Shown one piece after another: positions 2,765 to 18,621 of a stretch of DNA of 37,867 nt. The stretch comes from Deltaproteobacteria bacterium (GTDB lineage: Bacteria > Desulfobacterota > Desulfarculia > Adiutricales > Adiutricaceae). The stretch spans positions 1 through 37,867 of the forward strand of contig JAISEK010000098.1 of NCBI GenBank assembly GCA_031264145.1. Direction: 5' to 3'. The notes under the pieces were generated by a model that was not told the DNA's origin, searched no databases, and saw only the letters and a program-made list of their open reading frames with translations. A program made the position numbers and the translations under genes. How positions within the stretch are numbered: the first letter of the stretch is position 1; each line of letters opens with the position of its first letter.

Positions 2765-5094
2765 CCGACAAGAAAACCCTGTCCCCCGCCCGGTCCCGCA
2801 AGCGCCCGGCCTGGCGGGATAGGCTTGGCCAGATGGCGGCCGGCATGAGGCCCAGCCGGGGGCAGGCCAGCTTCTTCGTGGCCCTGGTCCTCATCGCCAT
2901 CCTGACCGTGGCCCTGTCCCGGCCCACGCCCGACAACTTCGTGGTCGGCCAGAAGGCCAACCACACCTACATGTGCGACAAGGACCAGAAGGTCCCGCTG
3001 AAGGGCACGGACATCGCCAGGGAGAGGGCCAGGGACGCGGTCGCCCCCATCTTCGCCCTCGACTACGGGGTCGGAGCCAGGGCCATCGAGGACTTGCGCG
3101 GGTTTTTCGCCTCTGGCCGGCTCCTGGCCGCCTCCGGTCAGGTGCTGCCGGGATACGGCGCCTTCGGGGAGGAATTCTGCCGGGCCTTCGAGCTGGGGGA
3201 AGACTGCCGGACCGTGCTGGACCTGGTCTGGCGCCGGGGCTTCGACCACGGGCTGGAGGACCAGACGGCCGCTCTGGCCATGGAGATCATGGGCCAGGGA
3301 ATCATGTCCGAGGAGGACCACCGGGGCCCGCTGGCCGGCCGGGACATCGAGATAAGCCGGGCCCTGACTGGCGCTTCCGGGGTAAGCTTCTCCTCCGTCC
3401 TGACGCTCCCCAGGGCCAGGGAGCTGGTCGGGTCCAGGACCGGCCGGCTGGGCCTGGACGGCCAGACCGCGCCCCTGGCCGACGTCCTGGCCAGGGCCCT
3501 CTTGCGCCCCAACCTCAGTCTCGACGATAAGGCCTGGGAAGACAGGAAGATGGAGGCCGAGGCGAAGGTCGAGTCGATCTACTCGCTGGCGGCCGGGGAG
3601 ATCATCGTCAGGGAGGGGGAAATAGTCTCGCCCCTGGCCGGCCAGCTCCTGGAGGGCATCCTCAAGGAGGGGGGCAGGGAGGCCGGCCTGTCCATTCGCC
3701 CCTACCTGGGCCTCCTGGTGCTCCTCTTGGTCTTTCTGGCTGTCAACCAGGCCCTGATCCACCTGGACGCCAAGGGGCCGGGGGTCGCCCCCCGCGAGAT
3801 GATCCTCATCTCCTTCCTTCTCCTGTGGTTCATAATCCTGTCCTGGTGGTCGGGGCACCTGACCAGGGGCCTCTTCCACGGCATGAAGAACTTCGACGTC
3901 CGGACCACGTTCCTGGCCATGCCCTTCCCGGCGGCGGCCATGCTGGGGGCCATCTTCCTCGGGCTCCGGCGGACGGTGTACATATGCTTCCTGGGGGCCT
4001 TCCTGGGGGCGATCGCCACGCCCCAGGTCTCGACGCTCTCGGCCTTCATCTACACCTGCAACGGCTGCATGGTCTCGATTTGGGGCCTCAGGCGCATCAG
4101 CGAGCGCTCCAGGTTCATCCCCTCGGCCTTCCTGGCCGCCCTGGTAAACTGCCTGACCATGATGGCCCTGACGTTGGCCGACGGCGACCTCCTGAGCCGC
4201 CAGTTCCTCTTCAACCTCTACGCCGCCGCCATCTCCGGGCTCTTGTCCGGCATTCTGGCCAGCGGCTTCGTCACCTTCTTCGAGGTGGCCCTGGGCCTCA
4301 CGACCAACCTGAAGCTCATGGAGCTGGGGAACCTCAACCGGCCCCTCCTGAGGGAGCTGATGCTGGCCGCCCCGGGGACCTACCACCACTCGGTCATCGT
4401 CGGCAACATGGTCGAGGCGGCGGCGGAGGCCATAGGGGCCAACCCCCACCTGGCCAGGGTCGGGGCCTACTACCACGACATCGGGAAGATCAGCAAGCCC
4501 CTCTACTTCATCGAGAACCAGACCGGCGAGAACAAGCACGAGACCCTCACGCCGACCATGTCGGCCCTGGTCCTCGTGGGCCACGTCAAGGAAGGCGCCG
4601 AGCTGGCCAGCAAGGAGAAGCTGCCCGAGGCCGTCATAGACATAGTCGAGCAGCACCACGGGACGAGCCTGATGACCTACTTCTTCCACAAGGCCAAGGA
4701 AAACCGCGGCCCCAACTCCGGCCCGATAAACGAGGGGGACTTCCGCTACCCCGGCCCCAAGCCGGCCAGCAAGGAGGCCGGCCTGGTCATGCTGGCCGAC
4801 GTCTGCGAGGCGGCCACCAGGTCCCTGACCGAGCCCACGCCATCCAAGATCCAGGAGCTGGTCAAGAACCTCATCAACCGGGTCTTCGACGACGGCCAGC
4901 TGGAGTCATCGGAGCTGGTCCTCAAGGACGTGACGGAGACCATGAGGATATTCAACAACATCCTCGTGGGCATATACCACCACAGGATAGCCTACCCCGG
5001 GATCAACAAGGACGCCCAGAACGAGCAGGCAGCCAAAAGCAAGGTCATCTACGGCCAGATGTACGACGAGGCCGGAAAGCCCCTGACCCATTAG
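2761..5094 (+). CDS. pgpH: PgpH-type membrane HD phosphohydrolase (7TM-HD)
   Basis: The 777-residue protein has the PgpH/YqfF architecture: a short basic cytoplasmic tail, one N-terminal membrane segment (about residues 37-57), a large extracytoplasmic 7TMR-HDED domain (to about 300), a block of seven membrane segments (about 315-510), and a cytoplasmic HD domain. The metal-binding HDIG is at residues 572-575 within YYHDIGK, with the upstream histidine pair in TYHHS and the downstream EQHHGT. Family knowledge: characterised PgpH proteins hydrolyse cyclic di-AMP, and whether this organism makes c-di-AMP cannot be told here. The ATG at 2761 overlaps the phoH stop, and the phoH-pgpH-ybeY order is a common conserved cluster. 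Confidence 0.93.
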
Positions 5095-5391
5095 GCCACC
5101 GAGTCTACGAATCGGCGGGCGACGCCCCCAGCGGCCCTTGGCCTCGCCGGAGGCGGGCCAGGGGCCTTTTGCCGGCCATGGGCGGGCCAGGGGCCGCTCC
5201 CCCGGGCTTTCCGGCAGGCCGCGCCGGCCGCTGGCGTGGACCCAGCGAGGTCGGCCGGGTGACTCTGCCGGCGTCGGGCCTCCTGGGCGAGTTCCAGGGG
5301 ATGCCCGCCTGGATCGCGGCATCCCTGCCGGCGGCTCCCGCGCGGCGCGGGCTGCCGGCGGCCAGAAGACGAAAGGGACGGGAACGGCCGA
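5095..5391. other. GC-rich spacer between pgpH and ybeY
   Basis: This is an unusually long gap inside a normally tight cluster. It holds a short direct repeat (GCGGGCCAGGGGCC, near 5153 and 5182). A low-complexity Pro/Gly/Arg open frame at 5138-5395 has a TGA overlapping the ybeY ATG, but its composition looks like random GC-rich DNA and I do not call it a gene. Confidence 0.5.
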
Positions 5392-15227: not shown

Positions 15228-15285
15228 GGCCGGCCACATGGGCAAGCCAAGGACCCGGCGGGCTGGGCCGCGCCCCCCGCTCGAC

Positions 15286-15759
15286 ATGGCCCGCGTCAAG
15301 GGCTCGGACACCAAGATCGAGACCAGGCTCAGGAAGCTTCTCTGGCGGGAGGGCATCCGCTACAGGAAGAACTACCGGCTGCTCCCAGGGACGCCCGACA
15401 TCGCCATCACGAGCCACAAGATAGCCGTCTTCTGCGACGGGGAGTTTTGGCACGGCAAGGACTGGGAGACCCGCAGGCTCTCCATCCGCAGGAACCTGGA
15501 CTTCTGGACGGCCAAGATAGAGAGGAACATGAGCCGGGACAGGGAGACCGAGAGGCTCCTGAGGGGCCTCGGCTGGCAGGTCCTGCGCTTCTGGGGCACC
15601 GACATCCAGAAGAACATTTCCACATGCATCGATGAGGTGAAGGAAGCCATATTCAAGGCGAAGACAGCCAAACTGTCGGCCTGGGAGCCCTCACCTGACG
15701 ACGATGGCTGCCATGGCCGGCCGCCAGACGGCTCCCAGAAGGCACCCGGCAGTGGCTAG
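15286..15759 (+). CDS. Vsr-like very short patch repair endonuclease
   Basis: The 157-residue protein matches the Vsr mismatch endonuclease fold family: RVKGSDTKIETRLRKLLW, LPGTPDIAI with the catalytic Asp, VFCDGEFWHGKDWE, FWTAKIERNMSRDRE and GWQVLRFW. The cysteines that bind structural zinc in E. coli Vsr are replaced (CDGEFWHG and FWGTD instead of HGCFWHH and VWEC), which puts it in a zinc-less subgroup. Vsr normally nicks T:G mismatches made by cytosine methyltransferase activity, and no such methylase is in the window. ATG 15286 matches the usual family start; ATG 15238 in frame would add 16 Arg/Pro-rich residues. About 35 C-terminal residues are non-conserved, and the TAG stop lies inside the left 82-base repeat. 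Confidence 0.8.
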   Translation: MARVKGSDTKIETRLRKLLWREGIRYRKNYRLLPGTPDIAITSHKIAVFCDGEFWHGKDWETRRLSIRRNLDFWTAKIERNMSRDRETERLLRGLGWQVLRFWGTDIQKNISTCIDEVKEAIFKAKTAKLSAWEPSPDDDGCHGRPPDGSQKAPGSG

Positions 15760-15837
15760 TACCTTGTTTTCCTTGGAATGTCGGACAAAGTCGGCTCATT
15801 TTTCTCAGTGTCAAATCCGGCCGAATCTGATTAGTCC
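15756..15837 (+). repeat. Left 82-base terminal inverted repeat
   Basis: The segment beginning CTAGTACCTTG and ending GATTAGTCC is the reverse complement of 18540-18621 at 75 of 82 positions, with no gaps. It starts in the last codons of the vsr-like gene and contains the spaced pair GTCGG-ACAAA-GTCGG. Confidence 0.95.
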
Positions 15838-16241
15838 AAGGTATCCACACCCCAATGTCAACAACTTAAGCCAATCTTGGCACCCAGTCTCAGTATCCAG
15901 TACAAAATAAATAATGCGTGCTGCTCCTTAGTTAGCGGGCCATGGACGAGTGCCATTTTCTCATCTGAGGGCTGGACGCCTTAATTTGTTGACATTGGGC
16001 TGGAACCCGGACATCTAACGATGGCGTCCAAATATCCACTCCTTCATGGCCACTCCGGACATTCGCAGAAAAGGCGCGGGCGTCCTCTGCGATAAACCCA
16101 ACGTCAAATTGAGACAAAGATCGTGTCTGCGACGTGGAATCAGACTCCCTTGTTTCATCTTTTCAACGGCGATCGCATCGACGATCATTGCCTGATCATT
16201 TCCGAAAAACATGCAGCCCTTGCTGCTAAGGAAGCCAGTAA
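15838..16241. promoter_or_regulatory. Leader region of the ATPase-HNH operon
   Basis: About 400 bases of intermediate GC without a convincing gene. CCCAATGTCAACAA (15851-15864) and its exact reverse complement (15986-15999) face each other; with one mismatch the match extends to 20 bases (15851-15870 with 15980-15999). They enclose about 110 bases. This may be an operator pair, a foldback leader or the remains of a nested insertion. No clear -35/-10 pair stands out. Confidence 0.5.
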
Positions 16242-17624
16242 ATGATAGAACGCCTGAAACTCGCCAATGTCGGCCCTGCCCAGGAAATGGAGCTTGAATT
16301 TGCTCCAAGGCTAAATGTCTTCACCGGCGACAATGGCTTGGGCAAAAGCTTTATCTTGGACATAGCATGGTGGTCATTAACCAGAACTTGGCCAGCGGAA
16401 ATCGGCCATAAATTGACGACGGGCTTAAAGGCTTTCCCCTACTCAGACCGCAAAAACGAAGCTGCCATTGAAGCCCTATTGTTGGATGATTCCCAAAAGA
16501 AATTTGGCTTTGCGTCCAAGTATAATCACCACATTCAAGGATGGGATAGCAAATGGGAGCCCCAAAGCTGGAAAATTAAAAACCCTGGCGATCCGAAACG
16601 CCCTGGACTTGCCATATATGTCATGTCAGACGGCAGTTTCGCGGTCCAGGACTATCACCGCAACCCCATATACTGGCCCTGGCAGATTCCAAAAAAAGCC
16701 GAGGAACAGGGACCTTTTGCTGCAATGAAGGATTTGGCGACCATGACCAGTGCCACGGCCTTTGTTTTTAACGCCCATGAAGTGTGGAATGGGTTAGACG
16801 CTGGGGATATTTCAGGCGAGAGGTGGATTTTATGCAACGGGCTTATTAGAGATTGGGCTGGCTGGCAGAAGGAACGAGGCGAGCCATTCGAGTATTTAAA
16901 GTCAGTTTTAAAAGAACTGTCCCCGCCTAATCACCCACCGATCGTTCCGGGAAAACTGACCAGAGTCAGCCTGGGCGATGTACGGGACATGCCGACGGTT
17001 AAAATGCCATATGGCCAAGAAATCGCCCTTGTTCACGCTTCCTCTGGTCTCAAGCACATACTGGCTCTGGCGTATCTTCTAGTCTGGACCTGGCATGAAC
17101 ACAAGATTGCGGCAGAACTGCGTGGAGAGGAAACAGCATCGTCCATCACTTTCTTGATTGATGAAATAGAGTCACATATGCACCCCAGCTGGCAGAGAAA
17201 AATAGTCGGATCCATGCTCAAAGTTGCGAAGATCCTCAACGAGGATATCGATGTTCAAATTATAGCCACCACCCATGCCCCTCTGGTCATGGCCTCTATT
17301 GAGCCACTGTTTGATGATAGACAGGATGCCTGGTTTGACCTTGATTTGGAAGATAGCGAAGTCGTTCTTAGCCGTCGGGAATTTGAAAAGCAAGGGGACG
17401 CCAATAACTGGCTTACCAGTGAAGCCTTTGATTTATCCAGCCCTGTTTCTGAGGAAGCGCAGATAGTCATAAAAGAGGCGAGGATGCTTCTCGACAAGAA
17501 AGATACAGCGACTGCCGATGAAGTGTGGGCTGTACACAAAAAATTGGCAAAAACCTTACCGTATGATAGTGACTTTTTATCAACCTGGCGTTATTTCTGG
17601 AAAAAACAAGGATATATGCAGTGA
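16242..17624 (+). CDS. AAA/ABC-type ATPase of a Septu-like defence pair (PtuA-like)
   Basis: The 460-residue protein is an SMC/ABC-like P-loop ATPase of the AAA_15/AAA_21 kind. It starts MIERLKLANVGP and has Walker A GDNGLGKS with K35. The signature-like HASSGLKHILALAYLL comes next, then Walker B FLIDEIESHMHP with D307 and E308, and a switch histidine in IIATTHAPLV. There is no membrane segment. Such ATPases paired with an HNH nuclease are anti-phage modules (Septu PtuA-PtuB and relatives); which subtype this is cannot be told by eye. ATG 16242 follows AAGGA (16228-16232). Its TGA overlaps the GTG of the nuclease gene. The base composition is foreign to the neighbours. Confidence 0.8.
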   Translation: MIERLKLANVGPAQEMELEFAPRLNVFTGDNGLGKSFILDIAWWSLTRTWPAEIGHKLTTGLKAFPYSDRKNEAAIEALLLDDSQKKFGFASKYNHHIQGWDSKWEPQSWKIKNPGDPKRPGLAIYVMSDGSFAVQDYHRNPIYWPWQIPKKAEEQGPFAAMKDLATMTSATAFVFNAHEVWNGLDAGDISGERWILCNGLIRDWAGWQKERGEPFEYLKSVLKELSPPNHPPIVPGKLTRVSLGDVRDMPTVKMPYGQEIALVHASSGLKHILALAYLLVWTWHEHKIAAELRGEETASSITFLIDEIESHMHPSWQRKIVGSMLKVAKILNEDIDVQIIATTHAPLVMASIEPLFDDRQDAWFDLDLEDSEVVLSRREFEKQGDANNWLTSEAFDLSSPVSEEAQIVIKEARMLLDKKDTATADEVWAVHKKLAKTLPYDSDFLSTWRYFWKKQGYMQ

Positions 17625-18214
17625 TTCCTGTAATATTAAAACCAGAGCCACCTGATTTCGATCAAAAGGTGCGTCAACCTGGGTATATATGGCTGGCCGG
17701 TAAAGGAATCGATTCAAACGGTGCGCCTCCAAAGGGCACAAAGCTTAAAGATTTGTGGCGAAAATCATATGGCCAACTGTACGATGCGTATGGAGGAGTT
17801 TGCGCATATTTAGCCATCTATTTTGAACATTGTATCGGCGCTGGATCAACGGATCACTTTATACCGAAATCCATCCACGCCGGCAAGGCATATGAATGGG
17901 GCAACTATCGCTTATCGTGCCGCGACGCTAATGCCCTGAAGAATAAATATGATGTTCTGGACCCGATCGGGTTGAGGCCAGATACTTTTGTCTTGAATTT
18001 AGTAGACGGCGAGATATCTCCTAGTCCGGCTTTAAATACTGCGGAGAAAAGCGCTGCTGAAAAAACCATAGCCCAGCTGAAATTAGACAGCCCTCGGCAT
18101 CGATGCATGCGGGCGAGACACTTTGCAAGATACTTGCGCAATAAGGATGATCAATTCTTGCGAGAGGAATCGCCTTTCGTCTGGTATGAGGCAAATAGGC
18201 AGCGACTATTATAA
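17621..18214 (+). CDS. HNH endonuclease of the ATPase-HNH pair (PtuB-like)
   Basis: The 197-residue protein contains an HNH core: STDHFIPKS with D78 and H79, then YEWGNYRLSCRDANALKNK with N95 and N104, the usual beta-beta-alpha metal layout. A block around GGVCAYLAIYF lies upstream where related proteins carry a cysteine-containing turn. The C-terminal 60 residues are helical and basic (RHRCMRARHFARYL). I infer that the ATPase controls its cutting of nucleic acid. The start is GTG 17621, overlapping the ATPase stop (GTGA), with AAGGA at 17608-17612. The coupling strongly implies a two-subunit complex. Confidence 0.78.
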   Translation: MIPVILKPEPPDFDQKVRQPGYIWLAGKGIDSNGAPPKGTKLKDLWRKSYGQLYDAYGGVCAYLAIYFEHCIGAGSTDHFIPKSIHAGKAYEWGNYRLSCRDANALKNKYDVLDPIGLRPDTFVLNLVDGEISPSPALNTAEKSAAEKTIAQLKLDSPRHRCMRARHFARYLRNKDDQFLREESPFVWYEANRQRLL

Positions 18215-18539
18215 ACTTAAATTAATATTAAAGCAAATATAATATTAAGTTTTAAATTATGAGTTTTATATTTATATTAACTATATAATCAACATTATAA
18301 GTAATTAAATTTTGTAATAAATATTTTTATGATAATATTGTTGCTATTTTATACTAAATATATGTCTAAATTTTTTTAAATTGGTTAAAAAGGAATAATT
18401 TAAGCCTATTACGCAGCTAATTGATTAATTATATACAGATATAAAGACCTTAAAAAGTCACAATTGCAGATAAACATGAGAGAATATCAAGTTAAATTGT
18501 CTCATCACGGCCCACAATTAACAAGTTGACTATGTGCTA
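18215..18539. other. AT-rich tail of the cassette
   Basis: This stretch contains almost no GC and no gene. An AT-only inverted repeat (AAACTTAA at 18213-18220 and TTAAGTTT at 18245-18252) just after the HNH stop could act as a weak transcript end. Confidence 0.5.
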
Positions 18540-18621
18540 GGACTAATCAGATTAGGCCGGATCTGAAGCTAAGAAAATTGAGCCGACTTTGTCCGACATT
18601 CCAAGGAAAACAAGGCACTAG
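18540..18621 (-). repeat. Right 82-base terminal inverted repeat
   Basis: This is the reverse complement of 15756-15837 with seven mismatches. It contains a perfect small palindrome, CTAATCAGATTAG (18543-18555), which is imperfect in the left copy. Confidence 0.95.

What the first reader, a model, noticed from the sequence alone, without database searches (positions are those of the whole stretch)
15756..18621. Defence gene pair packaged in 82-base inverted repeats
A 2.9-kb unit with only an ATPase gene and an HNH nuclease gene is bounded by two ungapped 82-base inverted repeats (75 of 82 identical). There is no transposase inside, the GC content differs from both flanks, and the ends share the tetranucleotide CTAG. 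This resembles a non-autonomous transposon or MITE-like carrier dedicated to one immune module, an arrangement I do not know as a described class.
Basis: partly seen in the sequence, partly recalled or inferred. Interest (0 to 1): 0.85.

Follow-up and report, generated by a model that had tools for sequence, protein, structure and literature searches.

The report
Septu defence genes in transposon-derived cassette
Two anti-phage (Septu) genes sit between mirror-image ends copied from a small jumping-DNA family that litters the same genome, so they form a transposase-less mobile cassette: a known kind of element with a new sort of cargo, seen here only once.

Summary
Window 15756-18621 is bounded by ungapped inverted repeats (75/82; 77/85). 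It holds only a Septu pair, ptuA (ATPase) and ptuB (HNH), with motif residues intact. The repeats are not private. They are the "right-end" half of a resident MITE family of about 20 copies (about 112-125 bp, CTAG...CTAG). The outer 47 nt are also the terminus of IS630 (Tc1/mariner-like) transposase copies in the same genome. IS630 inserts at TA, preferentially within CTAG, which fits both junctions. In two same-genus relatives polA and the PBP1 gene are adjacent, without vsr or Septu, and the best available relatives of ptuAB (58 loci scanned) lack comparable inverted repeats. The unit is therefore most likely a non-autonomous IS630-derived cassette (a "mobile insertion cassette") that carried a Septu system into the site at the vsr stop codon. 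Nor is there evidence for a class dedicated to immune modules, since no second cargo unit was found in this genome. Defence cargo and two same-type ends make it a somewhat unusual member. Present mobility and anti-phage activity are inferred, not shown.

The parts
15756..15840 (+). Left terminal repeat, 85 nt. Outer 47 nt match the IS630-copy terminus; the remainder matches the MITE core
15757..15758 (.). TA of the left CTAG, one copy of the presumed target duplication
   Evidence: sequence; comparison with MITE junctions
15850..16003 (+). Nested copy of a second small palindromic repeat family (CCCAATGTCAAC...GTTGACATTGGG)
   Evidence: inverted repeat I3; other copies 72-78% identical in L147, L177, L178
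16242..17624 (+). ptuA, Septu ATPase, 460 aa; Walker A GDNGLGKS (29-36), Walker B DE 307-308
   Evidence: PADLOC PtuA E 2e-154; conserved residues
17621..18214 (+). ptuB, Septu HNH nuclease, 197 aa; H79, N95, N104 intact; overlaps ptuA by 4 nt
   Evidence: PADLOC PtuB E 6e-59; NCBIfam PtuB below cut-off
18215..18536 (.). Non-coding tail, 20% GC
18537..18621 (-). Right terminal repeat, 85 nt, of the same end type as the left one and inverted
18619..18620 (.). TA of the right CTAG, second copy of the presumed target duplication
   Evidence: sequence

Best explanation
A non-autonomous IS630-type (Tc1/mariner-like) transposable cassette, of the kind called a mobile insertion cassette, whose cargo is a two-gene Septu anti-phage system. 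Each end carries about 85-97 nt of a resident MITE, always the half that matches the 3' (transposase-stop) end of the cognate IS630. A cognate transposase acting in trans would bind the two inverted ends, cut the unit out and insert it at TA within a CTAG, duplicating TA. Here the target was the CTAG that includes the stop codon of a vsr gene, between polA and a PBP1 gene. Once inserted, PtuA (ATPase sensor/scaffold) and PtuB (HNH nuclease) would act as a Septu system; an E. coli Septu cleaves tRNA-Tyr on infection. Shown by sequence: the repeats, their identity with MITE and IS630 ends, the CTAG/TA junctions, intact ptuAB, and same-genus relatives without the unit. Inferred: movement as one unit, the trans-acting transposase, the origin from two inverted MITE copies that lost their inner ends, and the defence activity.
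For: (1) The 20-base terminus occurs 51 times in the own genome at up to 3 mismatches; the reversed control occurs 0 times. Most occurrences pair into MITEs of 112-125 bp with CTAG at both ends and unrelated flanks. (2) The outer 47 nt of both arms align ungapped from the CTAG (36 and 37 of 47 identical) with the end of C12:1-988, whose transposase passes NCBIfam's IS630 cut-off (131.5 against 100 bits) and is DDE_3 at 2e-25. Related transposase 3' parts at C53 and C12:18152 carry similar ends, and C100:5061-6014 is an internally deleted relative with CTAG at both ends. (3) IS630 inserts at TA, preferentially in CTAG (Tenzen and Ohtsubo 1991, as cited in PMC2170065). (4) Both arms continue into MITE core that is absent from the C12 IS copy. 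(5) In same-genus G005 and G003, polA and PBP1 are adjacent, without vsr or Septu. (6) ptuA/ptuB are intact with conserved motif residues.
Against: No second copy of the unit and no base-exact empty site of a close strain was found. The CTAG palindrome hides whether the duplication is TA or CTAG. No intact transposase with these exact ends was found: the C12 copy is cut by the contig end and needs a -1 frameshift at an A8 run, and the others are decayed. The arms are 91% identical to each other but at most 81% to any resident MITE tested, so the unit is old or came from elsewhere. vsr is also missing from the relatives, so a larger island containing the unit could have arrived together.
Confidence: 0.8

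Rival explanations
1. Two independent MITE insertions happen to flank a Septu island that arrived by another route (perhaps together with vsr); the 2.9-kb unit never moved as one.
For: The genome is rich in these MITEs. vsr next to the unit is also missing from the relatives.
Against: Each arm lacks the inner ~27 nt and the inner CTAG that nearly all solo copies keep. The arms share derived bases (TTTTCCTTG, GGACAAAG, ATCCGGCC) and are closer to each other (91%) than to any resident MITE tested (64-81%). The GC change falls close to the arms.
Confidence: 0.13
2. The arms are ordinary regulatory or structural repeats (terminators, REP-like elements) with no transposition history.
For: Each arm contains a weak, inward-pointing terminator-like stem.
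Against: The same ends occur on transposase genes and at CTAG targets with unrelated flanks. There is no Rfam match.
Confidence: 0.03
3. A sub-case of the best explanation: the unit moved once but is now a fixed, immobile remnant kept only for its defence genes.
For: The two arms have diverged by 9%, and no intact transposase with matching ends is seen in the assembly.
Against: Four MITE copies are about 95-98% alike, implying later transposase activity; the C12 copy stops at a contig end, as multi-copy IS often do.
Confidence: 0.4

Closest known systems
Mobile insertion cassettes (MIC / MICE; e.g. MIC231 of Bacillus cereus, qnrS2 MICE of Aeromonas plasmid pAC3, PMC5444012)
   Same: IS-type inverted ends around passenger genes, no transposase, movable only in trans
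   Different: Ends are of the IS630/MITE type, both arms are the same end type and 85 nt long, and the cargo is a phage-defence system
TIME-COMP composite non-autonomous elements (PMC4133298)
   Same: Miniature elements at both ends mobilise the DNA between them
   Different: TIMEs are Tn3-derived and complete; here each flanking MITE lacks its inner end and the family is IS630
IS630 / Tc1-mariner insertion sequences (IS630, ISY100)
   Same: TA target within CTAG; terminal repeats shared with resident IS630-family transposase copies
   Different: No transposase inside the unit
Septu (PtuA/PtuB)
   Same: Two-gene ATPase + HNH module with conserved motifs
   Different: The module itself is ordinary; only its packaging differs from the other ptuAB loci examined
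Defence cargo of Tn7-like transposons (PMC8649781)
   Same: Defence genes carried by a transposon
   Different: Tn7-like elements are large and encode their own transposition genes

Membership tests
Mobile insertion cassette (MIC) | Ends are terminal inverted repeats of a known IS family | tested here: met
   36-37 of 47 nt ungapped identity with the terminus of a resident IS630 copy
Mobile insertion cassette (MIC) | Passenger genes present, no transposase inside | tested here: met
   Only ptuA/ptuB
Mobile insertion cassette (MIC) | Cognate transposase available in the genome | tested here: inconclusive
   C12 copy truncated by contig end and frameshifted; other copies decayed
Mobile insertion cassette (MIC) | Transposes when transposase is supplied | not testable with these tools
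   needs an excision/transposition assay
IS630-type insertion | TA duplication at the target, CTAG preferred | tested here: inconclusive
   CTA|...|TAG at both ends of the unit and most MITEs; three MITE ends read ATA|G, favouring TA over CTAG, but the palindrome hides it
MITE | Short (up to several hundred bp) and without coding sequence | tested here: not met
   Unit is 2866 bp with two genes; the solo relatives do meet it
MITE composite (TIME-COMP-like) | A complete miniature element at each end | tested here: not met
   Arms match only about 85-97 of 124 nt; inner ends absent
Septu | PtuA ATPase with Walker motifs plus PtuB with HNH residues, adjacent | tested here: met
   PADLOC hits; conserved G29-K35, D307-E308 and H79/N95/N104
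Septu | Protects against phage | not testable with these tools
   no assay
Retron I-A (Eco7/Ec78 type, which also uses PtuAB) | Reverse transcriptase and retron RNA beside ptuAB | tested here: not met
   No reverse transcriptase gene in the unit or directly beside it; no Rfam match

The most novel reading that the evidence does not exclude
MITE families can acquire and carry single small immune modules as transposase-less cassettes, so that the host's own IS630 transposase shuffles phage defence between genomes, and such cassettes recur unrecognised because they lack a transposase to flag them.
Probability: 0.12. Interest if true: 0.65.

Novelty: new member of a known kind. Interest (0 to 1): 0.38.

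Why it matters
Defence genes are known to travel on large mobile elements. This is a clear sequence-level case of a minimal defence system held between ends of a host-resident MITE/IS630 family, which transposase-based searches for mobile elements would overlook. It gives exact ends and a predicted target for a simple excision test. One case does not establish a class.

Tried and rejected
Other cargo units in the same genome: a sequence-profile search with the terminal repeat and inspection of solo ends gave only MITEs, broken MITEs, unpaired ends and IS630 remnants; the one other long paired unit (C100, 953 bp) is an IS remnant. Same MITE in relatives: none of 62 other genomes of the class. 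The 85-nt arm matched no plasmid record, and a degenerate 24-mer of the arm matched no viral contig. Inverted repeats around 58 ptuAB-type loci elsewhere: nothing comparable, longest hits 31 nt or less. A DNA search for an empty site with joined flanks found no relative matching across the junction; protein synteny was used instead. Rfam: no match. A composite with two complete MITEs was rejected because the inner ends are missing.

Full report
WHAT IS THERE. A left-versus-right flank comparison gives E = 1.3e-29. Between them are two genes with a 4-nt overlap: 16242-17624 is PtuA (PADLOC E 2e-154) and 17621-18214 is PtuB (E 6e-59), the Septu anti-phage system. No transposase is present. GC is 44.6% inside against about 66% outside; the last 322 bp before the right arm are only 20% GC. 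Across 57 PtuA and 54 PtuB relatives the Walker A and B residues and the HNH residues H79/N95/N104 are conserved and intact here. The closest relatives found in the one genome-collection scan are about 50% identical in PtuA, and none of the other 36 family genomes has a comparable PtuA, so the module looks foreign to this lineage.

WHAT THE REPEATS ARE. The 85-nt arm finds 18 places in the own genome, its own two included, and its terminal 20-mer finds 51 at up to three mismatches against zero for the reversed control. Most places pair into MITEs of 112-125 bp that begin and end with CTAG and have unrelated flanks. The MITE has two different ends. One continues GGAATGTCGGA.AAAG.CGGCTCAATTT, the other GATTTGACGGG. 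Both arms of the Septu unit are of the first type, and both continue into the MITE core to about position 85-97, then stop; neither has the second end. The arms are 91% identical to each other but 64-81% to the resident MITEs tested, and they share bases the MITEs lack, so they diverged together from the resident copies.

THE AUTONOMOUS PARENT. The GGAATGTC-type end is also the end of IS630-family transposase copies. Contig C12 begins inside one: its protein passes NCBIfam's IS630 cut-off (131.5 against 100 bits), and the element ends at 988 with a terminus that matches both Septu arms ungapped over 47 nt (36 and 37 identities). Transposase 3' parts at C53 and C12:18152 have similar ends. C100:5061-6014 is an internally deleted, decayed relative with CTAG at both ends. 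IS630 inserts at TA, preferentially in CTAG, with TA duplication (Tenzen and Ohtsubo 1991, cited in PMC2170065). The junctions read CTA|G...C|TAG. Three MITE ends read ATA|G, which favours TA rather than CTAG as the duplicated sequence, but for the Septu unit the palindrome makes the two indistinguishable. The C12 transposase reads through only with a -1 shift at a run of eight A (L145:273-280), which could be programmed or a lesion.

THE SITE. The left CTAG provides the stop codon of a vsr-like gene that follows polA; the right CTAG lies upstream of a PBP1 gene. In same-genus genomes G005 and G003, polA and PBP1 are adjacent with a short spacer and neither vsr nor Septu; in G005 the region upstream of PBP1 is recognisably similar to that right of the unit. 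So vsr and the Septu unit are both most simply read as additions in this lineage, and their order of arrival is not resolved. None of 62 other genomes of the class holds the MITE, so it looks like a lineage-specific expansion. Among 58 ptuAB-type loci elsewhere, none had an inverted-repeat hit longer than 31 nt across the pair: among the loci examined the packaging is peculiar to this genome.

HOW IT MOST LIKELY WORKS. The unit is best read as a non-autonomous IS630-derived cassette. I infer that two MITE copies in inverted orientation came to flank a Septu module and lost their inner ends, or that one end was duplicated in inverted form; either leaves one pair of functional outer ends, so transposase in trans would move everything between them. 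PtuA/PtuB would then defend the recipient; in an E. coli Septu, PtuA Walker and PtuB HNH residues are both needed and tRNA-Tyr is cleaved on infection (PMC13096335). The movement and the defence are inferences.

COMPARISON WITH WHAT IS KNOWN. Elements with IS ends, passenger genes and no transposase are a described class, mobile insertion cassettes, and miniature elements that mobilise intervening DNA are described as TIME-COMP. Defence cargo on larger, autonomous Tn7-like transposons is described (PMC8649781). The literature searches found no defence system in a mobile insertion cassette, but the library is partial, so that absence is weak. The unit is a new member of a known kind with unusual cargo and unusual ends.

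Noticed in passing
15850-16003; L147:4651-4796 and 1946-2093; L177:1777-1924; L178:6455-6617: A second small palindromic repeat family (CCCAATGTCAACAACTT...GTTGACATTGGG, ~150 bp), one copy nested just inside the left arm and another about 72 nt inside a solo MITE end at C131.
   Followed up: partly
L012, L005 and L177 flanks of MITEs: A third repeat (CCAGAACCGGA.TTGGCCTGAATG..., seen in L012 and L177) recurs next to MITE ends; L012 and L005 also share a ~136-bp flank at 82%.
   Followed up: no
L159:2439-3557 (G000:C72): Full-length 372-aa IS630-type transposase frame without recognisable terminal repeats; an orphan or perhaps domesticated copy.
   Followed up: partly
L145:273-280: Run of eight A where the IS630 transposase changes frame by -1; possible programmed frameshift.
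   Followed up: partly
15238-15759: vsr-like mismatch endonuclease gene between polA and PBP1, missing from that site in the relatives read; whether a methylase gene accompanies it was not examined.
   Followed up: partly
18215-18536: 322-bp non-coding tail of 20% GC in a 65% GC region.
   Followed up: no
L190:3317-3892 and 4738-5232; L188:3145-4296: The polA-PBP1 spacer of more distant relatives holds other lineage-specific ORFs (two related MSTEETKK proteins; a possible beta-barrel protein), so the spot may be permissive for insertions.
   Followed up: no
15780-15795 and 18582-18597: Weak terminator-like stems in both arms pointing into the unit.
   Followed up: no
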